From a virus: a DNA stretch of 64,000 nt. Positions 32,395-60,399 of this stretch are shown piece after piece. The stretch spans positions 1 through 64,000 of IMG/VR virus record IMGVR_UViG_3300048590_000292; one strand, 5' to 3'. Made by a program: the position numbers and the translations under genes. Each line of letters opens with the position of its first letter. Position 1 is the stretch's first letter. The notes under the pieces were generated by a model. It was given only the letters and a program-made list of their open reading frames with translations, was not told where the DNA came from and did no database searches.

Positions 32395-34053
32395 ATGGCA
32401 ATTACACTCGCATCATCTCCGACCACATCGCAACCTATCCCGATTTCAGACTGCCTACGATGGGTATTTGAGCCGGATAGCGCCGACGTGATAACAACGC
32501 CGGGCGTCATTGCCCAAATAGTGGTGACGTTTCCCGGATCACCGACAGACCCCGGCAACGGTACGGAGTTCGTGATGTGGGGGTACACGTTCACAACGCA
32601 AAGCGGTTCGGATTTCACGGCAACCTCTTTCGATGTTGTAGTCGGCAATAAGTTGTCAACAATGAACAACTTTGCCGGGATGGTTGCAAGTAACTTCTTT
32701 TTTGCCCGCGCCGTTTCGGTTGAGGTCGGGGTAAGTACGGTGACATTGACCTGGAATGAATGCGGAGAGCAGGAAAATTTCGGCGCAACGCAAATGTTTT
32801 TCGATAACATTGAAGGTAGTGCGATAACGTCGGCGGTGGCCACAAATGGCACGACGCCTGTCTACGTGGACGGTTATCGCATCTCATACCGTTTGCGCAG
32901 GACTGACGTAAACGACGAGGGTAATAGCGGGTATGTGACGAACTTTGAAGGCATGGAGCCTAACAAGGGCTGTACAACTGTTGACGACGCCGCGTTTGAC
33001 GCAATGCCGACCGTTCGCCGGTTGCTGAAAACACCAATACCCGATCTTGACCTTACACACCCGACGGTAGAATACGACGGCATTATCCAATATTTCAGCC
33101 TGATATACGGGTGGATTTACCGGGATGGAAACTGCCAAAGCCAAAGCGGATTGTTTGAGTTTACCGGGCGCTCGTTTATTTGGAACGCCTACTTTCAGGC
33201 CAAAGACGTGTACCGGACGCGAAAGTATTGGCCGGGAGCAAGCGGCGGGCTACCGCCGGGGCAATCATACGTGAAATTCCTAACCACTTCGCCCGACAAA
33301 ATGCGGGTGTTTGTGGATTCAAAGTGTTGGCTTTGGTACATGGTCAACGGGGCGATACAATCCTGGACAAACTTACGCCTGAATATTGCCGCAACGAAAA
33401 AAGATGGTAGCGGTACACTTACAAGTGTTGTCGTTTCGGATAGCGGGTACGGTATCAATGCCGTGAACGTTTCCCCGGATTACATTATCTCGCTTGGTAT
33501 GTCGGGCGTGACGGCTGACACGTTGAGCCATTACACGGTTAAGATAATGACCCAAAATAGTGGCAGTGAGTTCGATGTGACGCAAATAACAGAGGACAAG
33601 ACGTTCTACGTTATGACCGCCTGCGATACGGACAAGTTTACCGATCTTTATTTCCTTACCCCGATTGGCGGCATAGGCACTATCCCGGTTCAAATAATCG
33701 AGAGCAACGTTAACCAGGCAGGCGACGAAATACTTTTAGACGTACCTTGCACAGCAAGCCGGGAAGATAAGGCCCGGTATGGTGGCCGGACGCTTTCAAA
33801 TATACGTTCTTACGAATCATTCACTTTCCGATCAATTGACAACGGCAACGTGACAGAGTTTTTCCGCGACCTGAAATTAAGCCCGCAACGGTGGGTGAAA
33901 ATGGATGCGGAGGACGGTTCTGTGGTTGCCCGAAAATTAATCATTGAACCGGGCGGGGTGAAAATATATGAGGATGGCCCGATTGTTACCGTAGAGGTAA
34001 CCGGGTATTTGGGCGACATTATTATTCAATCTGGAACAGAACCGGAAATATGA
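32395..34053 (+). CDS. Tail structural protein (distal tail candidate)
   Basis: 552 residues, one base after the tape measure. Beta-rich throughout, Thr/Ser/Val-rich, with about nine Cys. No catalytic motif. By position it should be a distal tail or adapter protein. It ends in an ATGA overlap with a lipoprotein gene, which is unusual. Confidence 0.6.
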   Translation: MAITLASSPTTSQPIPISDCLRWVFEPDSADVITTPGVIAQIVVTFPGSPTDPGNGTEFVMWGYTFTTQSGSDFTATSFDVVVGNKLSTMNNFAGMVASNFFFARAVSVEVGVSTVTLTWNECGEQENFGATQMFFDNIEGSAITSAVATNGTTPVYVDGYRISYRLRRTDVNDEGNSGYVTNFEGMEPNKGCTTVDDAAFDAMPTVRRLLKTPIPDLDLTHPTVEYDGIIQYFSLIYGWIYRDGNCQSQSGLFEFTGRSFIWNAYFQAKDVYRTRKYWPGASGGLPPGQSYVKFLTTSPDKMRVFVDSKCWLWYMVNGAIQSWTNLRLNIAATKKDGSGTLTSVVVSDSGYGINAVNVSPDYIISLGMSGVTADTLSHYTVKIMTQNSGSEFDVTQITEDKTFYVMTACDTDKFTDLYFLTPIGGIGTIPVQIIESNVNQAGDEILLDVPCTASREDKARYGGRTLSNIRSYESFTFRSIDNGNVTEFFRDLKLSPQRWVKMDAEDGSVVARKLIIEPGGVKIYEDGPIVTVEVTGYLGDIIIQSGTEPEI

Positions 34054-34424
34054 AAAAGCACGACTTTTTAAAAGCATTACTGGCATCGCTCGCTGTTGTT
34101 TGGGTTTTATTCGGCAACTGCAAAAAAGAAACGCCCGACCCGATCATTGGATCATGGAAAGTTGCCGCGCCGTTTATTCAACAGCCTGGGTACTGGTTTT
34201 ACGAGGATGGTATGATGTGCCGGTATGAAGATCGGTGTTTGCCGGATAGCGTTGATTGCACCTACACGTACACAAAACACGACAACACGCTACACATTTC
34301 CGGCTATGCCGACATTGTGACATGGGAAATAGAGTGGATCAGTGACGACTTTATCCGGGTACGGGTTCCGCAAACCGAACACCTCACCAATATCATTTTT
34401 CTGGAGCGCGACACATGGGAATAG
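34050..34424 (+). CDS. Lipocalin-like lipoprotein 1
   Basis: 124 residues. Signal with lipobox: MKKHDFLKALLASL, then V-L-F-G-N-C at about 25. After the Cys comes K-K-E-T-P-D and then G-S-W-K-V, as in small lipocalin-like lipoproteins of Bacteroidota, with a beta-barrel pattern (YWFYEDGMMCRY, NTLHISGY, FIRVRV). It overlaps the tail gene before (ATGA) and the one after (10 bp). It would sit on a membrane of the infected cell, not in the virion. See findings for superinfection exclusion. Confidence 0.65.
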   Translation: MKKHDFLKALLASLAVVWVLFGNCKKETPDPIIGSWKVAAPFIQQPGYWFYEDGMMCRYEDRCLPDSVDCTYTYTKHDNTLHISGYADIVTWEIEWISDDFIRVRVPQTEHLTNIIFLERDTWE

Positions 34425-37112: not shown

Positions 37113-37403
37113 ATGAAATACGCCTTTTTGATATTGATAACCCTATTTATTGCCTGTACTAAGCAGGAGCCGCCCAACACAATGACGGGCATTTGGCACC
37201 GTGACAACGGCGCTACCTATTCCTTTTTTGAGGATAGCCGGTTTCAACAATCGGACAAGCCCGGCGCTCAATGGATTTGGATAAAGAAGGGAAACCAGGT
37301 GTATTTATACGGCAACCCGGATCGGTTTTGGACTGTTGACTTTTTGGGCCGTGACGAGGTTACCGTGATCGAAGATGAAAAATTCACAATTACGCGCAAA
37401 TGA
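37113..37403 (+). CDS. Lipocalin-like lipoprotein 2
   Basis: 96 residues from ATG 37113. MKYAFLILITLFIAC is a clean lipoprotein signal (F-I-A-C), followed by T-K-Q-E-P-P and G-I-W-H-R, then strands (ATYSFFEDSRF, NQVYLYGN). It matches the first lipoprotein in plan but not closely in sequence. It lies 1 bp after the tail gene stop and overlaps the next gene (ATGA). Confidence 0.65.
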   Translation: MKYAFLILITLFIACTKQEPPNTMTGIWHRDNGATYSFFEDSRFQQSDKPGAQWIWIKKGNQVYLYGNPDRFWTVDFLGRDEVTVIEDEKFTITRK

Positions 37404-46498: not shown

Positions 46499-48595
46499 AT
46501 GGCCTACACCAACGGCGTTTTTAGGATAGACTTAGTGAGCGGTTCGGACGCAGCCCGAACCGCTCTAACCTCTTGCACGGCTTCTAACCCGTCCGGGTCT
46601 ATTACGAATATTCAAAAAACAGCGCATGGCCTTGTTACCGGCGCGGTCGTTGATCTTACGCTGTTCACGGCGTGGCTGAATAGCGCGTGGAAGATTACCG
46701 TTGTTGATGCGGATAATTTCACGCTCGATGACGCTACATGGCAGGCTACTGCCGATACTTCCGGCACAGTCACGCCTCGCGGCGGGTCATCATGGTCGGA
46801 CGCCTGGTTAACCATAGGTAGCGGCGCAACGGCGGCACGTATTCAGCCTGGGGATGAAATGCGGATTTCCAAAACTGCCGATCCGGTTTCGCTGGGGCAA
46901 GATGCGACTTGGACGGACGGAAGTCAGACGGTCACGCTTACAACGGCGGTGACGAAAAAAATAGATGATTCAGCGGGGAGTACGTGGACGGTTTCAGCAA
47001 ACATAACAGGAAGTTCAAACACGAGCCGTAAAATAGGGGCAAACGCACAAGTTTTGACGCCTGCAACAGGATTTACAACGGGGAAAGTGGCCTACATACT
47101 TATTGCGGGCGGCGGAACGGAAGACTTCTCAGCGTATGAGAAAATATGTTTTTGGTTTCGGCCAACTTCAAATGCTGTAATAGCCGCAAGTACATATAAG
47201 ATTTGCCTTTGTTCCGATGCGACAGGCGACACAATTGTAAATGAAATAAATATACCGGCAACACTGAATAACACGGGTTGGCACATAATGGAACTGGACT
47301 ATGGTGCGGCGCTTGGGTCGTCTATTCAGTCCGTAGCAATATACGCAAACAGCGATCCGGGAACGACGGCTTTTTCTATAAACAACATTTTTGCTACAAA
47401 TGACCTGTCGCTAAAAACCCTGATCGGGAAAACCGGCGATGTAAACTATAATATCCAGTCGATTGACGGTACAACGATAAAAATAGACAGCAACAACACG
47501 GCGGCAACCGGGCGGGGGTATTCAGGCGCAACCTCGACAGAAACTTTGTATTATCGCGTTCCTTTTGATGTGACGACTACCGGATCATGGGCAATAATGA
47601 ACGAAAACGGTGCCGCAACATCGCCGTACAATCATTACATAGGAGGCTATAATACAACTAATGATACGCGTGACGGAGTAACTTGCATAGCAAGCGCTTT
47701 AGTAGGTGTAGGAACGTCGATTACCTGTTTTAATTTTTGTAAATTATCATATTTTACAATAGCGAGATTTAGTATAATTTCTGTTAGTTCGGCAAATAAT
47801 CTTGCAATATCGGACACGGTGTTTTGCGGCGGTGCTGGAACTTTTAGCACTTCGACTATCGCGATTACCCTTATTAATTGCAAATTTCTTAATCTGTCGG
47901 CCACTCCAACAATTTATGGAGGTGAATGTGTTTTTTTAAATTGTGAGTTCAGAAATATATCATCAACTGCAATTGCGGGTTACCCGGCACAGGAGTTTAT
48001 TTCTTGCACATTTGCCAATAACACCACCGCGTCAATAGCAATTTCAGATGGGGAAAGGAGGGGAACTGGGGCTGTGTTGCTGCGCAATTGCATACTATTG
48101 GACACAACAGAGATATTATCCACATCGAACAGATACTCATTCGCTTGGTCATACAACCACGACGACACACCCGGAAATCATTGGGGATTCACGAATGGAG
48201 CAACGATCAATATGCAATCTTCTGTTGTACACAGCGCCGAGCCTGTGGCGTGGAAATTCACGCTAAGTAGTTCCGCAAGTGGACAATACAGGCCCGCGAC
48301 ATTACGATTAGGCCCGTTTCCTGTCGAGGCTTCTGCACTTGTAACCGTAACCGCATGGATAAAAAAAGACCATGCAACCAACGTAGGCGCAAAACTTTAC
48401 GTGCAAGATGAACTATACAACATCGATGGCGTAGTTGCTGACAGCGCGACAAAGGCAGATGATACCAGTTGGGAGGAGTTAACCATAACTTTCACACCGA
48501 CAGAGGCGGGCGTAGTTCCGGTTTTTGTGGATGCTTGGTATGCAGATGGGGCATCTAACGTGTACGTGGGAAGTATAACTTTAACACAAGCATGA
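46499..48595 (+). CDS. Large fibre with beta-helix and C-terminal binding domain
   Basis: 698 residues. Repeated short strands with N-C-(K/E)-F ladders (about 440-530) indicate a parallel beta-helix. The end (about 570-698) resembles a carbohydrate-binding jelly-roll (V-T-A-W-I-K-K-D and S-W-E-E-L-T-I-T-F-T-P). The DNA for the middle part (about 47600-48200) is more AT-rich than both sides, which suggests exchange of the receptor-binding segment. Confidence 0.6.
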   Translation: MAYTNGVFRIDLVSGSDAARTALTSCTASNPSGSITNIQKTAHGLVTGAVVDLTLFTAWLNSAWKITVVDADNFTLDDATWQATADTSGTVTPRGGSSWSDAWLTIGSGATAARIQPGDEMRISKTADPVSLGQDATWTDGSQTVTLTTAVTKKIDDSAGSTWTVSANITGSSNTSRKIGANAQVLTPATGFTTGKVAYILIAGGGTEDFSAYEKICFWFRPTSNAVIAASTYKICLCSDATGDTIVNEINIPATLNNTGWHIMELDYGAALGSSIQSVAIYANSDPGTTAFSINNIFATNDLSLKTLIGKTGDVNYNIQSIDGTTIKIDSNNTAATGRGYSGATSTETLYYRVPFDVTTTGSWAIMNENGAATSPYNHYIGGYNTTNDTRDGVTCIASALVGVGTSITCFNFCKLSYFTIARFSIISVSSANNLAISDTVFCGGAGTFSTSTIAITLINCKFLNLSATPTIYGGECVFLNCEFRNISSTAIAGYPAQEFISCTFANNTTASIAISDGERRGTGAVLLRNCILLDTTEILSTSNRYSFAWSYNHDDTPGNHWGFTNGATINMQSSVVHSAEPVAWKFTLSSSASGQYRPATLRLGPFPVEASALVTVTAWIKKDHATNVGAKLYVQDELYNIDGVVADSATKADDTSWEELTITFTPTEAGVVPVFVDAWYADGASNVYVGSITLTQA

Positions 48596-49062
48596 TAGTA
48601 GAGCAATATACGGACATGGCCGGCAAATGGCGGGTGTTGTGGCAATCGGACACGACGGGGCAAACGTATAATTTCAAGTTCGCTGAAGAGCCGACAGAAC
48701 AACAATTGCAGGCACTTTCAGACGCGAATGATACGGCGGCAACGGTCAACGCTGTGCAGCCGCTTTCGTTTTCGATTCTGGAACACCGGGAAGTGTTGAT
48801 CGAATTGGTACGCCGTGTAAAGGCTTCGCCAAATACGACGCTTGCACAGTACAACAACTACTTAGGCACATTGCCCTGGTATGAGGCGGCTATCATTCGG
48901 ACGTTCGTTTTCCTGCTCGCTTCGCGCCTTGCAGAAAAGCAAGATGTATCCCTGGCAAGCCTGACAGAAAATACCGTATTCGTTGCCGTTCGGAACTTCT
49001 TAGCCGACACGCCTACATGGAAATTGGCCCGGTTGATCCTGGGTGAAAATGATATTCAATAA
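48592..49062 (+). CDS. Hypothetical virion-associated protein
   Basis: 156 residues, ATGA overlap at the start and sharing one base with the next gene. Beta start then helical (VLIELVRRVKAS, AIIRTFVFLLASRLAEK). It may be a fibre chaperone; this is only context. Confidence 0.5.
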   Translation: MIVEQYTDMAGKWRVLWQSDTTGQTYNFKFAEEPTEQQLQALSDANDTAATVNAVQPLSFSILEHREVLIELVRRVKASPNTTLAQYNNYLGTLPWYEAAIIRTFVFLLASRLAEKQDVSLASLTENTVFVAVRNFLADTPTWKLARLILGENDIQ

Positions 49063-51449
49063 TGGCACTGCCGACAAAAAGCGACTTACTTACCGGGAAG
49101 TTTTCTGCCGACGGTTCGCCGTTCGTGCAAGTGTCGGCAAAAGCCGGTATTGATACCAATACCCTTGAATATAGCGCGGACGGTTCGCCATTTTGGGCAG
49201 TAGAGGAAACGGGCGGCGGGGCGTCATACACCCTTGTAGCGGCGGCGGGCGCGTTCACACTTACAGGCATTGCGGCGGCGATAATTAAGGGCGTATTAGT
49301 TGCGGCAACGGCGGCAACATTCACGCTATCCGGCCAGGCCGCAAACCTGAAAAAAGGATATACGCTGCCTTGCTCCGCCGGGTCGTTTACCTTGTCTGGG
49401 CAATCCGCCGGATTATCGAACGGCAAAAGTATAACGGCTGGCGTTGGATCGTTTACGCTCGCCGGAAATGCGGCAACCTTCCGGGTAGGCCGTTCGGTAC
49501 AAGCCGGAACGGGCGCGTTCACTTTAACAGGCAATTCGGTATCGTTCAACAGCGCGGCAATACTTCCCGCCGGATTAGGCACTTTTACCTTAACAGGGAA
49601 CACAGCAGGCGTTTTTGCGGGGCGAAAGTTATTGGCCGGGGCCGGGACATTTGCCCTGACCGGCAACGAGGCGAATATTAACAAGGGCCGTACCCTTGTT
49701 TGTTCTGTTGTCAATTTCGCGCTGAATGCAGCCGATGTCGGCCTAAAGGCAGGAAAGGTGCTACCCGCCGGGGTAGGTATATTCACATTATCCGGCCAAA
49801 ATTCGGCGCTCAAAAAAGGCGCTACCCTTTCGCTTTCGGCGGGCAGTTTCGCGCTATCTGGGCAAAACGCCAATCTGAATAAGGGGCGAAGTTTGGCAGC
49901 CGGGGCGGGTTTATTTTCGCTTACAGGTAATGCGGCCAACCTAAACAGGGGCCGAACAATAGCAGGCGGAACGGGCGTTTTCATACTGACCGGCAATAGC
50001 GCAAACTTCAACAGCGCGGCAATCTTGCCAGGCGGCACCGGGTCTTTTGTTTTCACCGGCAACGATGCAGGGTTAATGGTAGCGAGGTTGGCCGGGGCCG
50101 GTACGGGTGCGTTTGTTCTAACCGGACAAGCCGCAAATCTTAACAAGGGGCGCAACATTGCGGGCGGCACAGGATCATTTACGTTATCTGGTATTTCCGC
50201 GAACCTGAAAGCGGGAAAATCAATTCAGGCCGCAGTCGGTTCGTTTAACCTTTCGGGGCAAGCGGCGGTAATACGCAAAACAAACACATTCTCCGCAAAC
50301 GCGGGCACATTCATACTTACCGGCCAAAGCGCCGGACTTGAAAAAGGTCAAACCATTGCCGCCGGTGTTGGATCGTTCGTATTGACAGGGCAAGCAGCGG
50401 CATTATTGCGCGGGCGAAATATTGCAGCCGGTACCGGGGTATTTATCCTTTCGGGGCAGCCTGTCGGGTTCAACGGCGCGGCGATATTATCGGCAGACCC
50501 GGCAGCGTACACACTTACGGGCAACAACGCGGGGCTTATCCATTCGGCAAAAGTATCCGCCGGGGCAGGTTCTTTCGCGTTGACTGGTAATGACGCGGCC
50601 CTCAACAAGGGGCGAAGTATCGCGGCGGGCGTTGGCGTGTTCAACCTCACGGGGCAAGCCGCCGGGATAAACAAAGGCCGGACAATGACGGCGGGGGCCG
50701 GGGCGTACGCGCTATCCGGGCAAAATGCGTTATTTGAGACTACCAGGAAAATAACGGCAGGCACCGGCGTATTTACGCTCACCGGAAATTCTGTTTCGTT
50801 CAACAGCGAGGCGAATTTGCCCGGCGGTACTGGATCGTTTGCCCTGACCGGAAACAATGCCGGGTTGAGGACTTCGCGTCTGTTGAGTAGTGGCGTTGGA
50901 TCGTTCACATTGACGGGTAACGCTGCCAATCTGAATAGGGGCAAATCAATGCCAGCCGGAACCGGCGCTTTTACATTCACAGGCAACGCGGTCAACTTCT
51001 TACGCGGGCGCGTAATGCCTGCCGTATCTGGTACATTCGCTTTATCGGGCCAATCTGTCGGACTTCGCAAGGCGTCTATTATCGGAATTAATGCCGGGGC
51101 GTACACGTTAACAGGCGAGCCGGTAGATTTTAGGATCGGCGGCGTTTTGGTTGCCGGGCATGGATCGTTTGTTTTTACCGGCAACGCGGCAACATTCCGG
51201 GCAACGCGGCAAATGCCGATAACGGCAGGATCATTCGTTATTACGGGCAATCCGGCAGGATTATTGAACGGAAATAAGTTGTCAGGCGATACGGGCGCTT
51301 TTGTGCTTACGGGCAATCCGGTTACGTTTATTTTAGGCCGCGAAGTTGCCGCCGGCACGGGCGTATTTGTGTTGACAGGAAACGCGGCGGGGTTGATCTA
51401 TTCGAGCGATGCGGGGGTGTTTGTGCCGCGTGTAGTTTGGTTCTATTAA
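49062..51449 (+). CDS. 22-residue repeat solenoid protein
   Basis: 795 residues. After 55 residues the protein is made almost only of a 22-residue unit, A-G-x-G-x-F-x-L-(T/S)-G-(N/Q)-x-A-x-(L/F)-x-x-G-R-x-(I/L)-x, about 33 copies, ending in P-R-V-V-W-F-Y. Glycine and small residues at fixed places suggest a beta-solenoid shaft. Similar units occur in phage tail-associated proteins of other groups. A higher-order period is present (see repeat feature). Probably a fibre shaft or surface adhesin. Confidence 0.75.
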   Translation: MALPTKSDLLTGKFSADGSPFVQVSAKAGIDTNTLEYSADGSPFWAVEETGGGASYTLVAAAGAFTLTGIAAAIIKGVLVAATAATFTLSGQAANLKKGYTLPCSAGSFTLSGQSAGLSNGKSITAGVGSFTLAGNAATFRVGRSVQAGTGAFTLTGNSVSFNSAAILPAGLGTFTLTGNTAGVFAGRKLLAGAGTFALTGNEANINKGRTLVCSVVNFALNAADVGLKAGKVLPAGVGIFTLSGQNSALKKGATLSLSAGSFALSGQNANLNKGRSLAAGAGLFSLTGNAANLNRGRTIAGGTGVFILTGNSANFNSAAILPGGTGSFVFTGNDAGLMVARLAGAGTGAFVLTGQAANLNKGRNIAGGTGSFTLSGISANLKAGKSIQAAVGSFNLSGQAAVIRKTNTFSANAGTFILTGQSAGLEKGQTIAAGVGSFVLTGQAAALLRGRNIAAGTGVFILSGQPVGFNGAAILSADPAAYTLTGNNAGLIHSAKVSAGAGSFALTGNDAALNKGRSIAAGVGVFNLTGQAAGINKGRTMTAGAGAYALSGQNALFETTRKITAGTGVFTLTGNSVSFNSEANLPGGTGSFALTGNNAGLRTSRLLSSGVGSFTLTGNAANLNRGKSMPAGTGAFTFTGNAVNFLRGRVMPAVSGTFALSGQSVGLRKASIIGINAGAYTLTGEPVDFRIGGVLVAGHGSFVFTGNAATFRATRQMPITAGSFVITGNPAGLLNGNKLSGDTGAFVLTGNPVTFILGREVAAGTGVFVLTGNAAGLIYSSDAGVFVPRVVWFY
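49225..51420 (+). repeat. 66-bp tandem repeats with 462-bp super-period
   Basis: The 22-residue unit is 66 bp at DNA level. A marked variant unit with F-N-S-A-A-I-L recurs at 49545, 50007, 50469 and 50799: spacings 462, 462 and 330 bp, exactly 7, 7 and 5 units. So blocks of seven units were duplicated as a whole, and two units were later lost from the last block. Confidence 0.75.
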
Positions 51450-51468: not shown

Positions 51469-52116
51469 ATGAAACACCTTTTTTTGATTCTCACAGTAAT
51501 TTTTGCCCTTGCCTTGCCTGACTTTGCCGACGCGCAAAAGGTCGCATCTACGCATGGCGTGGCCTATTCTACCGCAAACCCGACAACGGCACCAAGTAGC
51601 GGACGACCGCATCAACTTTGGCTCAACACCGAAACGGGTATTTTGTACGCATGGGACAAGTCTGCCAGGGCATGGTATCGGCAGAACAATGACCTTTACG
51701 GCGAAATGGGCATTGAACAAGATACCCTTACGCTTGCATTTGCCGCTGTCACGCCGGACACGGTAGAGGGTTTCACCGCCGGACTATTGCACGGGTTTTC
51801 CCTTGGCGGCGACCATTCCCTTATTTACACCGGGGCAAGGCAGGGGCGTTTTCTGCTTAACTACACGGTGTCTTTCACATTCGCCGAAGCGGGAACCTTA
51901 ACCTCTTATGTTAAGGTCAACACCGATATTGAATATAAGTCACGCCGTCGGCAGATTGTAGCAACCGCCGGGAACGTGGTAACAGTTTCGGGTAGTTGTA
52001 TTGTAACCCTCGAAACTTCTGACACGGTATCCCTTTGGTTTTTCCCAACAGCGCACACCGGATCGGATGACCTCACCGTATATGAGGCCAATATTTCGCT
52101 TGTTCAACTTCGATAA
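51469..52116 (+). CDS. Exported virion-module protein (Q-rule)
   Basis: 215 residues. Signal peptide MKHLFLILTVIFALAL with F-A-D-A then Gln. The mature part has a short region with G-R-P-H-Q-L-W-L-N-T-E-T-G (often seen in fibre linkers) and a beta-rich domain. Directly before the tailspike gene. An exported phage structural-type protein is unexpected. Confidence 0.6.
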   Translation: MKHLFLILTVIFALALPDFADAQKVASTHGVAYSTANPTTAPSSGRPHQLWLNTETGILYAWDKSARAWYRQNNDLYGEMGIEQDTLTLAFAAVTPDTVEGFTAGLLHGFSLGGDHSLIYTGARQGRFLLNYTVSFTFAEAGTLTSYVKVNTDIEYKSRRRQIVATAGNVVTVSGSCIVTLETSDTVSLWFFPTAHTGSDDLTVYEANISLVQLR

Positions 52117-52118
52117 TT

Positions 52119-55100
52119 ATGCGTTTTGTTGTCATAGTCATATTTATTTTAATGGCGTCTGTCGTAAAGGGACAGACGCCAACTTTTACTTTTCAATGCG
52201 TGTGCGACTATCTTACGGCAGCCGATAGCACGTGTGATATTTGCAACACCACAACGCAAAGCCGGTTTTTCAAAGGTCTGTTGATCTACAAAAACGGCGT
52301 GGCGCATAAGTGGATAGAGCAGCCCTACACCATTATTCAGAATTTCGATGCGTTGACCTTCAGGGAATTAATACCGGGGGCCGAATCTATCCGCATCGAA
52401 TTACGCGGCACCGCATTCGATTCTATTGCCCAATTTCGGGACAGCGTTCTTTGCCCATGTGCGGGAACCGGCGGGGGCAGGGAATACGTAGCCGGGCCGG
52501 GCATCGTGATCGAAGGCGATACTATTTCGGCAGTGGATACGTCGGCAACAAACGAACTGCAAAACCTGTTCGATACTATTTCCGTTGCCGGACAACAATC
52601 CATCGTCCCCAACAGCCAACACACCAAATTAACCCTTATTGAAGGCGTTGGTGTTACAATCACAACAGACAGTACAGCGCGGGAGTTAACGATAGGGGCC
52701 GACACAACACTATTGGCAACCGTAAACGATATTGACGTTATCACGCTTGCCGATAGCGCAGAATTGAAAGCCTATACCGGCATTGCCAGGGGCGTGATAC
52801 TTCGCCAACAGGGCCGCGAAGGAACGTTTACCCGAACGACAACAAGCCGGGCGCATGATGGGTATATGGTGTTTGAGGATGCTGCCGGGCGTAAATGGGT
52901 ACGAATAACGGAAGATGATGTATTGAATGTAAAATGGTTCGGGGCAATTGGTAACGGGGTGGCGGATGATTACTATGCCATACAGCGGGCTATTGATTAT
53001 ACCATTTACGAGGATACGACTATAAAAAAAGTATTCATCCCGTCCGGAAATTACTTGGTAAGTCGAACTATCCACATGGGCTACGGTTCGGCCTATTCGT
53101 CCGTTTCCCTTGTAGGTGACGGCGCTCCTACTTTCCGGGGGGAGCAACAATTTAACGGCGCGACAATAACCGTCAACTTTTCCAATGCCCCGGCGCTGAA
53201 TATTCAGGGGGCGCGACATTCGACGGTAGATAATATAACGCTCATCGGGCTTAATGAAATAACCGGGTATCTGACAGACACAAGCGCGTCCAATATTTCC
53301 AACTGGATTTATTCGGGCCTGGATACAATCGGAGACAACCGTTACACACCTTACGCGGCAATAACCGTGGATGCCTACGCAGGAACTGCGCCGACACCGG
53401 CCTATCCTAATGTACTATTCCCGTCCTATACCGGAATTTCGACACAGTATAGCAAGTTGAGTAGTTCGCAGGTGAAAATACGGAACGTCCACATATATAA
53501 ATTTACCGCCGGGATTGTCGTAAAGCCAAACGCAGATAACAACGGCGATTTTGTGCAGATCGAAAAAGCGATTATTGAGCGGGTAGCATACGGCATCAGC
53601 GTGGGCAACTCACAGGCGCGTAATACACGTATTTCTGACTGCTACATTGACGCGCATACATGTATAACGAACAGCAAGCACGGGGCGCAAATCGGGCGCA
53701 TTTCGGTTATAGAAAACGTCCACTTCGGCGGATACCAGTGGTTAGACCTCGGAGCGCCCGCATACCTGGAAGGACTTGAAATTAACGATTGCTACGGCGA
53801 ATCATTCCAGTGGATCGGATCAATTGGCATCGGCACGGTAGGCGCATTCCCGGCAATCACGTTCAACGGGTGTAAGTTTCAGCCGTCGGCACTGATTAAC
53901 CGCATATTGACACCAACGGCAAGCCTTACGGGCAACGCTGTTTATAATTTCAATCACTGCTCTTTTCAGAGCAACCGGATATATCTTTTTGAGAACGACC
54001 AAGCCGCATTGATCAATTTCAATCAGTGCAATTTCGGTTCATATCCTGGACTTGGAGAGCCAGGCGACACGGTACAGACATACCACACCCAATATTTCAG
54101 GGGGTTCGATTTCATTGTGGCGACCAACCCGACAAGTGTACACGTAAAACAATGCCGTTTTCACGAGATAGCAAACAGCGCCGGTGGTGGACTGTACCCG
54201 GCAATGAAGGGGGATAATACTGCACTTTCAACAGACCTGAACTACGGAAACTTTTGGGCAAAAAACAACCTTGATGGGTCAGATGTGCAATTTGCCGACC
54301 TCGGATTTATTTCGACAACAAACACCCTTACGGCGTTCACCGGCGGGGTTTCGCTGACAGACCGGGCGTTTCAGGGTACATCTTCCAGCAACTTTCAACA
54401 GGGCATAGGTACTGGCGATTTACTTCTTTTCCAGTACAACAATAACACCCTGCCTGTTGTGGTAACATCGGTTGCCGGATTAGTTATTCAGGGGCAAATA
54501 ATGTCAGGATACGCATACAATTCAGGCGGGGCGTACACATACATGTTGCAGGACACAAATATCAGTACCGGCCTTGTCAGGCATTTTTCATCCCGCAAGC
54601 TACTCAACAAAAAAACGGTATTCGGCGACTTTGTGAGCGGTTCGCGGATTGTTACGAACGTTTCGTACTTGTTCGATAATAGCGACGCTGCTGACGAGTT
54701 ACTGGTAAGTACGCCACTACTTAACGCCGACGGCTACCTAAATGCAATACCAAGTCCGGTAACCGTGGCGACCTACATAGATTCGCTTATAAGTTCAACC
54801 AGTTTCCGAATATCGGCGAACGCGACAAAAACAGGGCGGTATGAGATAAGGAACTGCTTTTTGGGGACGAATGATTTGTCTGAACAGGATTTTGTGTATG
54901 GAAATGGCACCGCTACGCAGGTGGCTTGGTGGAAAACATCAACCACAATTTCAGGCAAAAACGAACTCTGGTTTGACACGCTCAATATCAGACTTGGCAT
55001 AGGTTATAATGCGCCTGCGACACCGTTACAAATCGGGTCAAACGTAGCCGGGAATGACTACATACAAATGAACAATTCGAGCAGCGGAAACCCGCTTTTG

Positions 55101-57431
55101 CGAATGTTCAACACCGGAATACAGGACGGGCAAATGACGGTCAAACAATTCACGCTTGACGCCACCTATCCCGGATTTTCGCTAAACACAAACTTAGAGG
55201 TGAATGGCCGTATTCTGACATCGGCTGAATTTGGAGCACCAGGCCTCAACTCGCTTGGATCGGGAGTATCATACAACCAATCAACACCGGGCGGCGCTTT
55301 GCGTTTGCGCCCTGTGTCCGGCGCATCTTCCTATATCAACTTCGTCGAAAACGGCGTGGCATTTCGCGGTAGTATGGGGTTTGCAAATGGATCGGCTGAC
55401 TTCACTATGCGGATGGGAGCGCAGAATTTCACAGACGGTACAGAGCGGTTTCGATTTACCGGGGCGGGTAGATTCGGCATTGCGACAAATAACCCGCAAA
55501 GAGCGTTGCACGTTGAAGGAGAGGCCCGTATTTCAGACCTTTCAACCGACGCGCCCATACAATTTGTCGGAGCCGACGCGGACGGCGATTTAGGCGGCAT
55601 AACACCCGGGCCAGGAGCTACAATTGTAGCCGGGGTGCTTACAATTGCAGATACGAGCGCTACAAATGAGGCCTGGACAATTGACGGGGATGACGCCGAT
55701 ACGGAACTAATAACAACACAGACCGTCAAATTCGAGGGCGCAGGCACCGTGACAACCGACTACGATCCAGGAACGAATACGCTATTAATTACCGGAACGT
55801 CGGCTGCCGGGCTAAACGGCATCTACGGCGACGGCACAGCAACGAGCGGAAACGATACGCTACCGCCGGGAGGTGCGACGGTTACAATTCCGGGGCAGTG
55901 GCAGCCGCTACAATTCAACGCAAACACGGCAGGCGGGCAAGCGTGGTCGGCCCTGGTTGTCAACGCGGCTACATGCTCCGACGACCGCGTGACAAAATAC
56001 CTTGTCGGAAAATCACCGTCTGACAGCCTGGAAATATATGGGTATGATTGCGCGGCAATTATAAAAGAAACAGGCGGAATATTGACGCTGGAAACAGACC
56101 GGGAATTATGGTTAATCGGCGATTCAATTAATGCCACAACAATCCCGACGCGAACGGTCTTGCCCTTTTTGGTCGGGCAAACGGCGGCGGGATGGCTGCA
56201 AAAAATAGAAGGCACATCAGACGGGCAAGTGCCGGTTTGGGATGACACAAATGGATGGTGGGAACTTGGATCGGCGGGCGGTAGTGGCACCGTTACCGGA
56301 TCGGGCGCAGGCGGACAAATGGCATATTGGGACGGCGCAACGTCAATTGCCGGGGAAAACAATCATTGGTGGGACGCCACAAACGACCGTCTCGGAATAG
56401 GCACCAACGGCGGCGCGGTATCATCCCGCGTTGACGTTACAACAAACAGCCTCGGAACAAGTCAAACGACAACATCCGGTTTGGCCGTTGTCAACACCAC
56501 AGCGGCGGCAGCCGGGGCGCAACAAATAAGCCCGGCAATAAGGTGGAGCGGGGCAGGATGGAAAACAACGGCAACAGCGGCAAGCCAGGCTGTAGAATTT
56601 CGGTCGTATGTCACGCCGGTACAAGGCACAACCGCACCAACGGGGTATTTGGGATTCGGGTCTGCAATAAACGGATCATGGGCTAACGACCAATTCAATC
56701 TCAATTCAGGGGGTGAGGTTGGAATAGGAACAACAACGTTTACAGGGTCTGGCGCATTTGCCCGCCTGAATGTAACAGGTGGCAGCGGGGCGGTAGCGCC
56801 GTACCTTATCAACGCTTTCACGGCATCATCATCTGGCGGGACGGTGTACGCACAAATATCGAACACACAAAGCGCATCAACTACATTTCTATCACTCGGA
56901 GAGGCAGCCGACATTAACGCGATTAAGGCAGGGTTACGGCGATATGGATCAACACACGCAACGCTGCCCAATCAACTCGACTTGGTTAACGTGGGGAGCG
57001 CAGCGGTAACACTTTCAACGAACCTAACCGTTCGCATGACGGTAGCCGCAGACGGCACCGTACATGCAACAAACAAGTTAGCAGCCGGTTTTGCCTCTAC
57101 AACTGGCATACATTCCACCTTGCAAACTGCCGGATCATTTGCCGGGGCAAGGCTGGAGACTGTTACTGCGCCTACATTCGACGCCACAAAACACACGGTT
57201 ATTTACACCGCATCTACAAACGTATCATGGACGCTTCCATCGGCAGCATCTTGCGCGTGTGACGGGCGGGTGTATATCCTTCACCATGCCGGAACAGCGG
57301 GAACCATAACCCTATCACAGACAATCACAAAAGGAGGCGGCACAAACTTCAACACACTTACGGCGGGGCAGTGGGCGTATATTACATACGGCGCCTCTTC
57401 TATCCGGGGATACAAAATCATTTCATTATGA
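52119..57431 (+). CDS. Giant tailspike (pectate-lyase-like beta-helix) with signal peptide
   Basis: 1770 residues. Residues 1-19 are a signal peptide ending K-G then Gln. Around 270-330 is the hallmark of tailspike hydrolase folds (V-K-W-F-G-A-I-G-N-G-V-A-D-D, A-I-Q-R-A-I, V-F-I-P-S-G-N-Y), followed by a long right-handed beta-helix. The C-terminal half has repeated modules of the kind Q-(V/M)-A-(W/Y)-W ... N-x-(L/H)-W ... R-L-G-I-G (near 935-965 and 1400-1430). It would degrade or bind surface glycans. The clear export signal on a virion-type protein is the odd point. Confidence 0.75.
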   Translation: MRFVVIVIFILMASVVKGQTPTFTFQCVCDYLTAADSTCDICNTTTQSRFFKGLLIYKNGVAHKWIEQPYTIIQNFDALTFRELIPGAESIRIELRGTAFDSIAQFRDSVLCPCAGTGGGREYVAGPGIVIEGDTISAVDTSATNELQNLFDTISVAGQQSIVPNSQHTKLTLIEGVGVTITTDSTARELTIGADTTLLATVNDIDVITLADSAELKAYTGIARGVILRQQGREGTFTRTTTSRAHDGYMVFEDAAGRKWVRITEDDVLNVKWFGAIGNGVADDYYAIQRAIDYTIYEDTTIKKVFIPSGNYLVSRTIHMGYGSAYSSVSLVGDGAPTFRGEQQFNGATITVNFSNAPALNIQGARHSTVDNITLIGLNEITGYLTDTSASNISNWIYSGLDTIGDNRYTPYAAITVDAYAGTAPTPAYPNVLFPSYTGISTQYSKLSSSQVKIRNVHIYKFTAGIVVKPNADNNGDFVQIEKAIIERVAYGISVGNSQARNTRISDCYIDAHTCITNSKHGAQIGRISVIENVHFGGYQWLDLGAPAYLEGLEINDCYGESFQWIGSIGIGTVGAFPAITFNGCKFQPSALINRILTPTASLTGNAVYNFNHCSFQSNRIYLFENDQAALINFNQCNFGSYPGLGEPGDTVQTYHTQYFRGFDFIVATNPTSVHVKQCRFHEIANSAGGGLYPAMKGDNTALSTDLNYGNFWAKNNLDGSDVQFADLGFISTTNTLTAFTGGVSLTDRAFQGTSSSNFQQGIGTGDLLLFQYNNNTLPVVVTSVAGLVIQGQIMSGYAYNSGGAYTYMLQDTNISTGLVRHFSSRKLLNKKTVFGDFVSGSRIVTNVSYLFDNSDAADELLVSTPLLNADGYLNAIPSPVTVATYIDSLISSTSFRISANATKTGRYEIRNCFLGTNDLSEQDFVYGNGTATQVAWWKTSTTISGKNELWFDTLNIRLGIGYNAPATPLQIGSNVAGNDYIQMNNSSSGNPLLRMFNTGIQDGQMTVKQFTLDATYPGFSLNTNLEVNGRILTSAEFGAPGLNSLGSGVSYNQSTPGGALRLRPVSGASSYINFVENGVAFRGSMGFANGSADFTMRMGAQNFTDGTERFRFTGAGRFGIATNNPQRALHVEGEARISDLSTDAPIQFVGADADGDLGGITPGPGATIVAGVLTIADTSATNEAWTIDGDDADTELITTQTVKFEGAGTVTTDYDPGTNTLLITGTSAAGLNGIYGDGTATSGNDTLPPGGATVTIPGQWQPLQFNANTAGGQAWSALVVNAATCSDDRVTKYLVGKSPSDSLEIYGYDCAAIIKETGGILTLETDRELWLIGDSINATTIPTRTVLPFLVGQTAAGWLQKIEGTSDGQVPVWDDTNGWWELGSAGGSGTVTGSGAGGQMAYWDGATSIAGENNHWWDATNDRLGIGTNGGAVSSRVDVTTNSLGTSQTTTSGLAVVNTTAAAAGAQQISPAIRWSGAGWKTTATAASQAVEFRSYVTPVQGTTAPTGYLGFGSAINGSWANDQFNLNSGGEVGIGTTTFTGSGAFARLNVTGGSGAVAPYLINAFTASSSGGTVYAQISNTQSASTTFLSLGEAADINAIKAGLRRYGSTHATLPNQLDLVNVGSAAVTLSTNLTVRMTVAADGTVHATNKLAAGFASTTGIHSTLQTAGSFAGARLETVTAPTFDATKHTVIYTASTNVSWTLPSAASCACDGRVYILHHAGTAGTITLSQTITKGGGTNFNTLTAGQWAYITYGASSIRGYKIISL

Positions 57432-57907
57432 GGATTATACTATTCATACTGCTATTGCTGCCGGTTTTTGCAAAGGCGCAGGTATCCGATTTCGCTATAT
57501 CGGATTCGATTTGGTTCACCCTTGATACCCTCGGATACGATAGCCTTATTCAGGTTACGGATTCTTTCTACGGCGACGACAGCGCAACCGTTTACACGGC
57601 AGTTTTTCAGTTGTCCGGCGCATCTTTCAAGGGCTTGTCAGACAGTGCGCACCCGCAAATATTTGCATTTGGTGACCCTGACTTAACAAAGTGCTGGTTT
57701 TTGCGAGAGGTGGCAAACTGGATACAGGGCAACACCGGAACAAATTACGGTAGTATCGATTTAATCGACTTTGGCGGGGGCCGAAAATGCACCATAACCG
57801 TATCGGGTGACACATGGGAAGGGCAAGCCTTAGACGACACAAACGCCCTTGCACGGGCATGGTTTCAATTTCTCATAGACCCAGACTTTTTAACATACAT
57901 ACAATGA
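57428..57907 (+). CDS. Exported protein (Q-rule)
   Basis: 159 residues from ATG 57428, in the stop of the tailspike gene. Signal MRIILFILLLLPVF with A-K-A then Gln. Acidic mature part with W-F-L-R-E-V-A-N-W and few Cys. Unknown; coupled to the tailspike, so perhaps its partner or cap. Confidence 0.6.
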   Translation: MRIILFILLLLPVFAKAQVSDFAISDSIWFTLDTLGYDSLIQVTDSFYGDDSATVYTAVFQLSGASFKGLSDSAHPQIFAFGDPDLTKCWFLREVANWIQGNTGTNYGSIDLIDFGGGRKCTITVSGDTWEGQALDDTNALARAWFQFLIDPDFLTYIQ

Positions 57908-58431
57908 GACAACTACTATTTTTATTGCTGCTTTTTGCCGCCAACCTTTCGGCGCAAAAAGCCGTGAAGTACGAAATTGATTTTATTGCGGCGGATTCGT
58001 TCTACCTGGTTGAGCGGGCCGTGACAGGCGCAAAGACAAGGCCCGACACGTTGAACACGCACACGCTGTTCACAGATACAACAGCGTATAAGTTGTACGT
58101 CGATCAACTTGAACGCGATTACAAGCGGGCCGAAAAGGAATATACGAGATTGAAAGCAGAGGCCGACAGCCTGGATAGTCGCGTGAAACGCCTGACCCAA
58201 TTGGGCAAAAACAAATTGGGCATCGAAGGACTGACAAAGCCAGGCAAAGACAACCGAAACGCATCAGCGCCAACACCGGCAACGCCTGTCGGATTTTGGG
58301 TTTTGTACCCGACCAAATCCGCAAAGGTTGAGTTTGTCACAGACCCGGCAAAAATCAAAAAAAATGCCTTAATTTTGAGGCCGGACGGCAGCACAACAGA
58401 ACAAAAAGCGCCGCCTAAAAAGAAGCAATGA
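57904..58431 (+). CDS. Exported coiled-coil protein (Q-rule)
   Basis: 175 residues from ATG 57904 (ATGA). Signal MRQLLFLLLLFAANLSA then Gln. A coiled coil follows at about 60-100 (L-E-R-D-Y-K-R-A-E-K-E-Y), then a basic tail. Could act between membranes at lysis (spanin-like) or support the tailspike; undecided. Confidence 0.55.
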   Translation: MRQLLFLLLLFAANLSAQKAVKYEIDFIAADSFYLVERAVTGAKTRPDTLNTHTLFTDTTAYKLYVDQLERDYKRAEKEYTRLKAEADSLDSRVKRLTQLGKNKLGIEGLTKPGKDNRNASAPTPATPVGFWVLYPTKSAKVEFVTDPAKIKKNALILRPDGSTTEQKAPPKKKQ

Positions 58432-58829
58432 GGATACTGCTATTATTGATTTTCCCGGCGCTATGCACAGGACAGGCCCGGCAGATTTCATTCGGCGTTA
58501 AGGTTGACACAACGGGCGTTTACTTTATCACGCAATTGGTAACGGTTGTAAATGACACTACACGCACAACAGCGGACGCTATTCGATTTGAAAGCGCGGC
58601 AGCAGCCATTCCGGTTGTTCAATCCACTATTGCCGCCGTTCAACGCGACAGCGCCGAAATACAGGCCATGTACCGCAATACGATGCGGCAATTGATTGAA
58701 CTACGGCAGGGGCTTTCCGCATTGCAACCACAGGCACAACAGCAAACAACGCCGTTAACGGCAGAGCAGGAGTTGGCACGACTACGGGAAGAAAACGAAC
58801 GATTGAAGCGAGCGCAAAAAAAAGAGTAG
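58428..58829 (+). CDS. Exported helical protein (Q-rule)
   Basis: 133 residues (ATGA). Signal MRILLLLIFPALCTG then Gln. The mature part is helical, with Q-L-I-E-L-R-Q-G-L and an end of E-E-N-E-R-L-K-R-A. With the two genes before it, it forms a trio of exported proteins next to the lysis genes. Confidence 0.55.
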   Translation: MRILLLLIFPALCTGQARQISFGVKVDTTGVYFITQLVTVVNDTTRTTADAIRFESAAAAIPVVQSTIAAVQRDSAEIQAMYRNTMRQLIELRQGLSALQPQAQQQTTPLTAEQELARLREENERLKRAQKKE

Positions 58830-58871: not shown

Positions 58872-59228
58872 ATGTATGCCGTGGAAAACAAAAACCCTGT
58901 TATGACGGAGTTTTGGCAAGGATTTGCCGCGTTTATTAAATCGTTCTGGAATCAGGCCGCACGGCAGGGTTTTTCGATCATGCTATTGATAATCACGAAC
59001 GTCGGGTTCATTTTGTGGATTGACCGCCTGAATAACGATATGCTAAAAATGCGGGCAGAGCACCGGGTTGAAATTATGGAAATAAGGAACGAATACCGGG
59101 GGGATATTCAACGCTTGCGCGTGGTCATCGATTCACTGAAAACCGGGTTAGATGATTGCAATGAGGCGCGTATCAGGTTAGAATCACAAAACGCGACATT
59201 GCTTGCGTTTATGAAACAGAAACGTTAA
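58872..59228 (+). CDS. Membrane-anchored coiled coil, spanin or holin-partner candidate
   Basis: 118 residues (a start at 58902 is also possible). One membrane helix near 34-52 (FSIMLLIITNVGFILWI) followed by a long coiled coil (LKMRAEHRVEIMEIR, IRLESQNATLLAFM). The shape is that of an inner-membrane spanin or phage coiled-coil membrane protein next to a holin gene. Confidence 0.55.
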   Translation: MYAVENKNPVMTEFWQGFAAFIKSFWNQAARQGFSIMLLIITNVGFILWIDRLNNDMLKMRAEHRVEIMEIRNEYRGDIQRLRVVIDSLKTGLDDCNEARIRLESQNATLLAFMKQKR

Positions 59229-59248: not shown

Positions 59249-59506
59249 ATGGATTTTTTGATCAAATTTCTTGCTCAAATCTTTTCGGGGTTCAAACTAA
59301 AAAGCCCGTTGGCCGCATCGGTCGTTTTGTTTGCGCTTGGCGTGATTCTGAACGGCGTTACACAGGGGACGTTTTACGGACTGTTTGTTTTGCCTGAATG
59401 GGCAAATGAAGTGGTACGTTATGTTACCATGTTTTTGCTTGCGGTAACGGGGTCGCAAACATTCCAGTACACAAACCCCGAACAAGCGGTAATAACCACA
59501 AAGTAA
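59249..59506 (+). CDS. Holin-like small membrane protein
   Basis: 85 residues, two membrane segments (PLAASVVLFALGVIL and VVRYVTMFLLAVTG) joined by a short loop, charged C-terminus. Size and place before the lysis enzyme agree with a class II-type holin that makes holes in the inner membrane. Confidence 0.65.
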   Translation: MDFLIKFLAQIFSGFKLKSPLAASVVLFALGVILNGVTQGTFYGLFVLPEWANEVVRYVTMFLLAVTGSQTFQYTNPEQAVITTK

Positions 59507-59530: not shown

Positions 59531-59562
59531 GCCCCTTCGGTTATGCCGTAGGGGCTTTTTTT
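59531..59562 (+). terminator. Terminator of the late operon
   Basis: GCCCC (59531-59535) pairs with GGGGC (59551-59555), inner TCGG/CCG pairing adds to it, and seven T follow. It lies between convergent transcription units. Confidence 0.75.
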
Positions 59563-60229
59563 ATTCCGCTATTTCGTTTCCCGGCAACACAGACGACGTG
59601 AAAATAAAGTTCGGATCGGCAATATAACGCGGGTCTGTTTTGCACAGCCGGATAAATTCGAGGTGTTCATTCCACAGCAGCCCGACTAAACAACCCTCGG
59701 AAAATGTACCAACATTGCCGCCGGTATAACCGGGCCGGGTAGAGTGCTGGTTTATCCCGAAGTACCCAATGTGGATTTTATCGCCGGGGCGCTTCATATC
59801 CCGGTTTTTGTCCCGGTGAACTGGAAGCGGCATTACCTGGACAAGCGCCTGGTGATTCTTTCCGTTTTTCCGCGTGTTGTGAAAGCCTGCCCGCCATGCC
59901 GTGTATTGCCCGAAGGCGATACGCGCCACGCCGCCGCGCTTTGCCGCATCTGCCGACATTGTACCGGCCCGGCCCGGCTCGGTGGTCGCTACGGCGCAAT
60001 GAAGCAGCCGGGGCGTATCGCCTACAAAGTCAATCACGCAGCGTAGGTCGTTCCAAACGTCCGGCGCGTCTACGTTTTGCGTGCCGTCCGGGTTCATTCC
60101 CTCTACATAGGCGATGTTAAGTTCGCCTGGGGCGGTAAATATTGCGTACCCCTTCGCCCGCATATATCTAAGCAGGCGTTTTGCCAGAATCACGGCGGGC
60201 GTATCTGTTTCGGTAGGTTGTAATTCCAT
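59561..60229 (-). CDS. Probable peptidoglycan-active enzyme (lysis), L,D-transpeptidase-like motif
   Basis: 222 residues from the ATG at 60227-60229; upstream codons overlap a terminator and are excluded. A conserved-looking stretch near 165-190, G-I-N-Q-H-S then G-T-F-S-E-G-C-L-V, resembles the H...S-x-G-C active site of YkuD-type enzymes and of some phage wall hydrolases. Next to a holin-like gene, so a lytic enzyme is plausible. It is the only large gene on the minus strand and has a -7 box 13 bases before its start. Confidence 0.55.
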   Translation of the reverse strand: MELQPTETDTPAVILAKRLLRYMRAKGYAIFTAPGELNIAYVEGMNPDGTQNVDAPDVWNDLRCVIDFVGDTPRLLHCAVATTEPGRAGTMSADAAKRGGVARIAFGQYTAWRAGFHNTRKNGKNHQALVQVMPLPVHRDKNRDMKRPGDKIHIGYFGINQHSTRPGYTGGNVGTFSEGCLVGLLWNEHLEFIRLCKTDPRYIADPNFIFTSSVLPGNEIAE

Positions 60230-60241
60230 GCTTTTTTTGTA

Positions 60242-60249
60242 CAAAAATA
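60242..60249 (-). promoter_or_regulatory. Minus-strand promoter -7 box (TATTTTTG)
   Basis: Reads TATTTTTG on the minus strand, 13 bases before the lysis enzyme start. No TTG is seen at the usual -33 distance. Confidence 0.4.
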
Positions 60250-60261
60250 CGGCCATTTTGT

Positions 60262-60296
60262 GCAAAAAGAAACCCGACCTTATCAGGGGTCGGGTT
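60262..60296 (-). terminator. Terminator after the tRNA gene (minus strand)
   Basis: On the minus strand AACCCGACC (from 60296) pairs with GGTCGGGTT (to 60271), nine perfect pairs, followed by TTTCTTTTT. It ends the tRNA transcript before the lysis gene. Confidence 0.7.
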
Positions 60297-60326
60297 GGCC
60301 GCACGGGACTACCGCGCAGGCGGTTG

Positions 60327-60399
60327 TTGCGAGGACGGGACTTGAACCCGCGTCTAAAGGTTATGAGCCTTTCGAGTTAGCCAACTTCTCTACCGCGCG
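60327..60399 (-). tRNA. Initiator-like tRNA-Met (CAU)
   Basis: 73 nt without encoded CCA. Anticodon loop C-T-C-A-T-A-A on stem AAAGG/CCTTT; T arm (C)GGG-TTCAAGT-CCC(G) and U8-A9. Position 1 is C and 72 is A, the unpaired C1xA72 of bacterial initiator tRNA, and A11:U24 is also initiator-type. Unusual: the stem has A29:U41 where initiators have G29:C41, and there are mismatches at 5:68 (C-U) and 13:22 (A-A). The -7 box ends only 3 bp before its first base. Confidence 0.75.

What the first reader, a model, noticed from the sequence alone, without database searches (positions are those of the whole stretch)
51469..58829. Virion-module proteins, including a 1770-aa tailspike, carry Q-rule export signals
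Seen: the genes at 51469, 52119, 57428, 57904 and 58428 each begin with a hydrophobic signal and A/G-x-A/G followed by Gln; 4807, 5226 and 6093 do too. Known: Bacteroidota signal peptidase I substrates often have Gln at +1, which becomes pyroglutamate. Tail proteins normally assemble in the cytoplasm. Inference: this phage sends tailspike-like proteins to the periplasm or cell surface, either to strip glycans or receptors from the host, or to assemble part of the particle outside the membrane, which would be a new assembly route.
Basis: partly seen in the sequence, partly recalled or inferred. Interest (0 to 1): 0.8.

Follow-up and report, generated by a model that had tools for sequence, protein, structure and literature searches.

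The report
Phage tail-spike module with export signals
A virus of Bacteroidota bacteria, like several cultured relatives, tags its tail-spike proteins with the host's export signal, although tailed-phage particles are thought to be built inside the cell, which suggests that the spikes are made outside the inner membrane and added late.

Summary
Five consecutive late genes (51469-58829), including a 1770-aa pectate-lyase-fold spike, begin with hydrophobic signals ending in A/G|Gln. 4807 and probably 5226 do too; 6093 does not as written.

A relative (IMGVR 3300038540_000091) keeps the signals on three orthologues. The signals have diverged (10/40 identical) while the mature chains are conserved from Gln+1 on (232/289; p = 7e-12). 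A third virus carries the spike's C-terminal domain behind another N-terminus, again with a Q signal. A fibre sharing the last domain in a non-Bacteroidota-like phage has none.

The feature recurs in Cellulophaga phages of several families. By their GenBank records, in phi10:1, phi19:1 and phi18:3 the signal-bearing proteins are virion proteins identified by MS/MS: 11 of 11 distal adhesion proteins carry a signal, against 0 of 27 other MS/MS structural proteins (p = 8e-10). The same lyase domain in phi4:1 and phi14:2 sits on signal-less anchors.

Best reading: the adhesion module is made as Sec/signal-peptidase-I pre-proteins and joins particles outside the cytoplasm, probably at lysis. Export is well supported, and so is virion membership in relatives. 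Cleavage and assembly site are inferred. Signal peptides on such lyases were mentioned once (PMC8776804), without this conclusion.

The parts
51469..52116 (+). 215-aa exported protein: Q-rule signal (1-22), 'RPxQLWLNTETGILYAWD' segment, C-terminal C1q/TNF-like (BclA_C-like) domain; probable trimeric head or adaptor of the adhesion module
   Evidence: Signal. BclA_C E 5e-5, below the curated cut-off. Low-confidence model (pLDDT 51) matches TNF/C1q folds and the cyanophage A-1(L) short-tail-fibre CBD. Orthologue in G001: 6/22 identical in the signal, 159/193 in the mature chain.
52119..57431 (+). 1770-aa spike: Q-rule signal (1-18), Cys-rich N-terminal domain (19-140), pectate-lyase-fold region (about 235-650), GIGTT-type fibre region, two conserved C-terminal domains (1231-1370 and 1660-1770)
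   Evidence: PF12708 E 3e-13; PHROG EPS depolymerase E 1e-13. Orthologue with swapped middle. C-terminal domains shared with L042 and L044.
52119..52172 (+). Sec/SPI signal peptide of the spike; predicted cleavage between residues 18 and 19 (G|Q)
   Evidence: 4/18 identical to the G001 signal against 73/96 identical in the mature chain from Gln+1.
57428..57907 (+). 159-aa exported protein with Q-rule signal, start overlapping the spike stop (ATGA); no counterpart found in G001
57904..58431 (+). 175-aa exported protein: Q-rule signal, beta segment, coiled coil, C-terminal 'GFWVLYP' segment with basic tail
   Evidence: orthologue L009:3681-4238:-, 28% identical, E 2e-15, also with a Q signal
58428..58829 (+). 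133-aa exported protein with Q-rule signal, beta segment and coiled coil; possibly a paralogue of 57904
58872..59228 (+). 118-aa protein with N-terminal membrane span and coiled coil (i-spanin-like); start of the lysis block, no Q signal
   Evidence: weak orthologue L009:3299-3628:-, E 5e-6
59249..59506 (+). 85-aa holin-like membrane protein
   Evidence: hydrophobic segments; no family match
59561..60304 (-). endolysin-like protein
   Evidence: PHROG 33083 endolysin E 1e-9; phrog_3000 E 4e-27
46499..51449 (+). Last structural-module genes without signal (46499-48595, 48592-49062, 49062-51449): the boundary between signal-less and exported proteins lies at 51449/51469

Best explanation
The distal adhesion module of this phage (spike, C1q/TNF-like companion and three small accessory proteins) is synthesised as Sec pre-proteins that obey the Bacteroidota Q-rule. 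Steps: (1) late translation in one overlapping gene run; (2) Sec export across the inner membrane; (3) signal peptidase I cleavage before Gln and cyclisation to pyroglutamate by the host; (4) folding and trimerisation in the periplasm, possibly with disulfides (ten Cys in paired motifs are conserved in the spike); (5) attachment to cytoplasmically built particles once holin, endolysin and spanin open the inner membrane at lysis. The meeting point would be between the last signal-less structural protein (49062-51449) and 51469. Shown by sequence: the signals, their conservation and their spread. Shown by others' MS/MS annotation in relatives: membership in virions. Inferred: cleavage, disulfides, place and time of attachment.
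For: 1) Five adjacent genes carry A/G|Q signals against a 0.6% background. 2) Three orthologues in G001 keep hydrophobicity and Gln+1 while the signal sequence diverges; for the spike and 51469 identity rises sharply exactly at the predicted cleavage site (10/40 against 232/289, p = 7e-12). 3) Virus contig L042 has the spike's C-terminal domain (58% over 151 aa) behind a different mature N-terminus, again after a Q signal. 4) Cellulophaga phages phi10:1, phi19:1 (Assiduviridae) and phi18:3 (Pachyviridae): 11/11 distal adhesion proteins annotated from virion MS/MS have signals (10 with Gln+1, one with Lys), against 0/27 other MS/MS structural proteins, p = 8e-10. Ingeline_1, phiSM, Nekkels_1, phi19:3, phi13:2 and phi46:3 have the same layout. 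5) The homologous pectate-lyase domain in phi4:1 and phi14:2 sits on other, signal-less N-termini and is MS/MS-detected, so the signal belongs to the attachment half, not to the enzyme. 6) The signal plus about 25 mature residues (MKHTISIVLFFILSLGLNA|QTVEGTVGSDGSLIPYNVS) is re-used on different C-termini. 7) The module lies directly upstream of the lysis genes here, in G001 and in phi10:1. 8) Ten Cys of the spike lie in conserved regions and all ten are kept in G001 as pairs.
Against: No N-terminal sequencing or fractionation was available; cleavage is predicted. The MS/MS statements are one-line notes in records; the underlying paper was not held, so contamination of particle preparations cannot be excluded. 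The Cellulophaga N-terminal modules have been exchanged among families, so those families are not independent origins. No virion data exist for G000 itself. Several Bacteroidota phages do without signals. Other structural proteins of G000 are as Cys-rich as the spike, so Cys content alone proves nothing. Structure models were poor.
Confidence: 0.6

Rival explanations
1. The proteins are exported but are not working parts of the virion. They act in or beyond the periplasm as free enzymes or surface proteins (loosening matrix or capsule before release, blocking superinfection, or lysogenic conversion), and their detection in particle preparations is carry-over.
For: Q-rule genes of unknown function in P. 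gingivalis phages were read as outer-membrane modifiers (PMC10367356). A bacterial enzyme with a tailspike fold and a Tat signal, WceF, acts on the cell's own biofilm glycan (PMC7949094). The small exported proteins 57428-58829 have no virion evidence.
Against: Virion MS/MS is noted for all signal-bearing distal proteins of the block in three phages except phi10:1 gp095. These genes are the evident candidate receptor-binding genes of the distal module, and homologous lyase domains are virion parts on signal-less anchors in phi4:1 and phi14:2. No T9SS C-terminal domain for surface secretion.
Confidence: 0.2
2. The hydrophobic N-terminus is not cleaved in the molecules that matter. Part or all of the protein stays in the cytoplasm and uses the N-terminal helix for trimer bundling or docking; export is partial or absent.
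For: Tailed-phage assembly is otherwise cytoplasmic (established knowledge); long multimeric spikes would have to fold after Sec translocation.
Against: Gln at +1 and small residues at -1/-3 are kept while the helix sequence drifts to 4/18 identity, which is expected of a cleaved signal and not of a docking surface; conservation starts at Gln+1.
Confidence: 0.13
3. The signals are passive remains of host secreted-protein genes captured as fibre modules, without function in the phage.
For: GIGTT-type repeats of the spike resemble secreted Bacteroidota proteins (from memory, not tested); fibre genes are mosaic.
Against: Signals persist on the members of the module through deep divergence, and on different mature N-termini; passive remains would decay.
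Confidence: 0.04

Closest known systems
Cellulophaga phage distal tail modules (phi10:1 gp091-095, phi19:1 gp101-104, phi18:3 gp085-087, Ingeline_1 gp31-34, phiSM gp7-8)
   Same: Run of spike, lyase and fibre genes with Q-rule signals, just before the lysis block in phi10:1; in three phages annotated from virion MS/MS
   Different: No sequence similarity to the G000 N-terminal domain or companion protein was found in the phage collection; G000 adds three small exported proteins
Pectate-lyase-fold tailspikes / EPS depolymerases (PF12708, phrog_4250)
   Same: Pectate-lyase-fold region at about 235-380
   Different: The four spikes examined in Acinetobacter, Vibrio, Pseudomonas and Klebsiella phages have no signal-like hydrophobic N-terminus
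Q-rule genes of Porphyromonas gingivalis Nixviridae phages (PMC10367356)
   Same: Phage genes using host Sec/SPI with Gln+1
   Different: Of unknown function, not linked to the tail by their authors
Filamentous phage coat proteins (M13 G3p; PMC8310372, abstract seen)
   Same: Virion proteins made as Sec pre-proteins
   Different: Extruded, non-tailed virus; the proteins are membrane-anchored
P22 gp9 tailspike in-vitro tailing (recalled, not looked up)
   Same: Spikes can join finished particles in a lysate
   Different: gp9 has no export signal

Membership tests
[quoted passage not shown]
   5/5 genes; background 0.6%
[quoted passage not shown]
   needs N-terminal proteomics
Pectate-lyase-fold tailspike / EPS depolymerase | Pectate-lyase-like superfamily domain above curated cut-off | tested here: met
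   PF12708 50.5 bits against cut-off 27
Pectate-lyase-fold tailspike / EPS depolymerase | Encoded in the late structural/lysis region of a tailed phage | tested here: met
   terminase, tape measure and head protease upstream, endolysin downstream
Pectate-lyase-fold tailspike / EPS depolymerase | Present in the virion and degrades a surface glycan | not testable with these tools
   virion MS/MS exists only for analogous Cellulophaga proteins
Type IX secretion cargo | C-terminal T9SS sorting domain | tested here: not met
   no hit in NCBIfam or Pfam for 51469 and 52119
C1q/TNF-like (BclA_C) trimeric head domain (51469) | Profile match above curated cut-off | tested here: inconclusive
   23.5 bits against cut-off 38; weak fold matches from a low-confidence model

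The most novel reading that the evidence does not exclude
In a broad group of Bacteroidota tailed phages the receptor-binding apparatus is built in a different compartment from the rest of the particle. It is exported by Sec, cleaved, pyroglutamylated, possibly disulfide-bonded and pre-assembled in the periplasm, then snapped onto spike-less particles at lysis: a two-compartment assembly pathway for tailed phages.
Probability: 0.5. Interest if true: 0.88.

Novelty: new variant of a known kind. Interest (0 to 1): 0.72.

Why it matters
Textbook assembly of tailed phages is cytoplasmic. If virion spikes pass through Sec, then part of assembly happens outside the inner membrane, particles inside unlysed cells are not infectious, and host Sec, signal peptidase I and glutaminyl cyclase become phage assembly factors. 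It would also explain why receptor-binding modules can be swapped among unrelated phages (a portable signal plus docking peptide), and it matters for heterologous expression of Bacteroidota depolymerases. The question can be tested at once in cultured Cellulophaga phages.

Tried and rejected
Tailspike, terminase and N-terminal-domain scans of the viral collection found nothing; only the major capsid protein reached relatives, and profiles then reached L042 and L044. Two genome scans found no cellular or prophage homologue. tblastn of the N-terminal domain, 51469 and the capsid protein against phages: nothing. AlphaFold of 51469 and of the spike N-terminal domain gave low confidence (pLDDT 51 and 53), so folds are not used as evidence beyond a hint. 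The L014 match to 51469 is a 21-residue motif in a signal-less tail protein, not an orthologue. L044's 180-aa neighbour is not a homologue of 51469. T9SS surface display was considered and not supported. Cys enrichment of exported proteins was considered and dropped as a general argument.
Full report
WHAT WAS CHECKED. The window is 64 kb of a 68,742-base virus record. It holds a terminase, tape measure and head protease, an endolysin and almost no Shine-Dalgarno sequences before late genes (3 of 23), as expected for a Bacteroidota phage. The five genes at 51469, 52119, 57428, 57904 and 58428 all start with strong signal sequences ending in A/G|Gln. With one fixed rule, random internal 45-mers of the window proteome pass at 0.6%, and of 83 ORFs only these five neighbours and 4807 pass.

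HOMOLOGUES. The major capsid protein led to two uncultivated relatives (75-78% identity). One, IMGVR_UViG_3300038540_000091 (G001), covers the distal module. It has orthologues of 51469, of the spike and of 57904 in the same order, all with Q signals. In the spike the 18-residue signal keeps 4 identities, while the mature chain is identical for seven residues from Gln+1 (QTPTFTF) and in 73 of the first 96. In the 51469 pair the signal keeps 6 of 22, the mature chain 159 of 193. Pooled, 10/40 against 232/289, p = 7e-12. Rapid drift of letters with retained hydrophobicity and a boundary at the cleavage site is the signature of a functional, removed signal peptide. The middle of the spike is swapped (pectate-lyase fold in the window, repeat fibre in G001), while the N-terminal domain and two C-terminal domains are kept, the usual mosaic of tail spikes.

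TWO NATURAL CONTROLS. A third virus contig, L042, carries the C-terminal spike domain (58% over 151 aa) on a protein whose mature N-terminus is different but which again starts with a Q signal, MRQTIFLLFFLLAAFDIAA|Q. A fourth contig, L044, has a fibre sharing the last domain (46% over 76 aa, E 3e-8). Its fibre has no signal, and neither does a C1q-domain protein nearby. So the same kinds of tail domain occur with the signal in Bacteroidota-type viruses and without it elsewhere. The four pectate-lyase spikes of Acinetobacter, Vibrio, Pseudomonas and Klebsiella phages that were examined also have no signal-like hydrophobic start.

CULTURED BACTEROIDOTA PHAGES. In Cellulophaga phage phi10:1 the four distal proteins gp091-gp094 (including a pectate lyase and a tail fibre) begin MKKILLLLLFISASLSA|Q, MRKLLLISLFLTSVLSFG|Q, MKKTIYILSILLLTISGVSA|Q and MKHTISIVLFFILSLGLNA|Q. 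Each is annotated 'based on experimental MS/MS proteomics analysis'. phi19:1 gp101-104 and phi18:3 gp085-087 are alike; gp104 has Lys instead of Gln at +1. Across these three phages 11 of 11 distal MS/MS proteins have a signal and 0 of 27 other MS/MS structural proteins do (p = 8e-10). The layout recurs in Nekkels_1, phi19:3, phi13:2, phi46:3, Ingeline_1 (Duneviridae) and phiSM. N-terminal modules have been exchanged among these phages, so the families are not independent inventions; the G000 lineage has unrelated sequences and counts as a separate case. The homologous lyase domain of phi4:1 and phi14:2 (44-49% identity) is carried on signal-less N-termini and is also MS/MS-detected. Fibres of phi46:1, phi38:1, P2559S and P12024S lack signals, and scans of regions from FCL-2, laban6-1 and 1H found none on genes downstream of the tape measure. 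The feature is therefore patchy: a choice of anchor, not a property of the enzyme or of the phylum.

MECHANISM. The gene runs overlap (57428 starts in the spike's stop codon), so the module is probably made together, next to the lysis block. Export by Sec and cleavage by signal peptidase I are predicted with high confidence from sequence. In Bacteroidota about 71% of such substrates expose Gln, which is cyclised (PMC5837995, PMC10653852). No type IX sorting domain was found, so the periplasm is the likely end point until lysis. All ten cysteines of the spike's conserved regions are kept in G001 as pairs (CxC, CxxC, CPC, C-x24-C, CAC), which would fit oxidative folding but does not prove it. 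Because capsids and tails form in the cytoplasm (established knowledge), exported spikes could meet them only when lysis joins the compartments. The predicted interface is between the last signal-less structural protein (49062-51449) and 51469. Steps shown: signals, their conservation, their spread, virion annotation in relatives. Steps inferred: cleavage, folding state, time and place of attachment.

RIVALS. Free exported enzymes with carry-over into particle preparations (0.20), uncleaved or dual-localised proteins (0.13), and functionless remains (0.04) are weighed in the Rival explanations section. The first is the most serious, because the MS/MS evidence is a one-line record note and the paper I believe to be its source is not held.

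PRIOR WORK. The authors of PMC8776804 noted that lyase-containing proteins of Ingeline and Nekkels carry 'signaling peptides' and that such enzymes usually sit on tails, without drawing an assembly conclusion. The authors of PMC10367356 found five Q-rule genes of unknown function in P. gingivalis phages, a point repeated in PMC10653852. Nine literature searches found no paper that connects export signals with virion spikes of tailed phages; most subscription papers were not searchable.

VERDICT. Observation confirmed apart from 6093.

Noticed in passing
34050-34424 and 37113-37403: Two small genes inside the tail operon look like lipoproteins (LFGN|CKKE and LFIA|CTKQE); candidates for superinfection exclusion. 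Pfam gives nothing firm.
   Followed up: partly
1-150 of the window and the last 300 bases of the 68,742-base record: The two record ends share at least 40 bases within a 15-base tandem repeat (pentapeptide-repeat-like gene), which suggests a circular or terminally redundant genome cut inside a repeat gene.
   Followed up: partly
60326-60399 (-): tRNA-Met (CAT) beside the endolysin gene; possibly phage-encoded or a remnant attachment site.
   Followed up: no
4807-5642: Two overlapping early-region genes, one with a clear and one with a plausible Q-rule signal and no family match; may be a second exported pair.
   Followed up: partly
49062-51449: 795-aa protein made of about 35-residue 'AGxGxFxLTGNAA' repeats, signal-less, last before the exported block; in G001 the place is taken by an unrelated repeat protein of 'TTPFVTAYPWSSGFGTKYSNPATLP' units (L009).
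   Followed up: no
L025:11339-15552, L032:6890-10067: In Pachyviridae phages the same signal plus N-terminal segment sits on two different fibre genes of one genome, as if the docking module were duplicated for alternative spikes.
   Followed up: partly
L022:10110-10613, L024:11387-11941: Upstream of the tape measure gene of two integrase-bearing Flavobacterium phages lie a PF14730 gene with a Q-rule signal (laban6-1) and a gene annotated DUF4468 (1H, no Q signal found).
   Followed up: no
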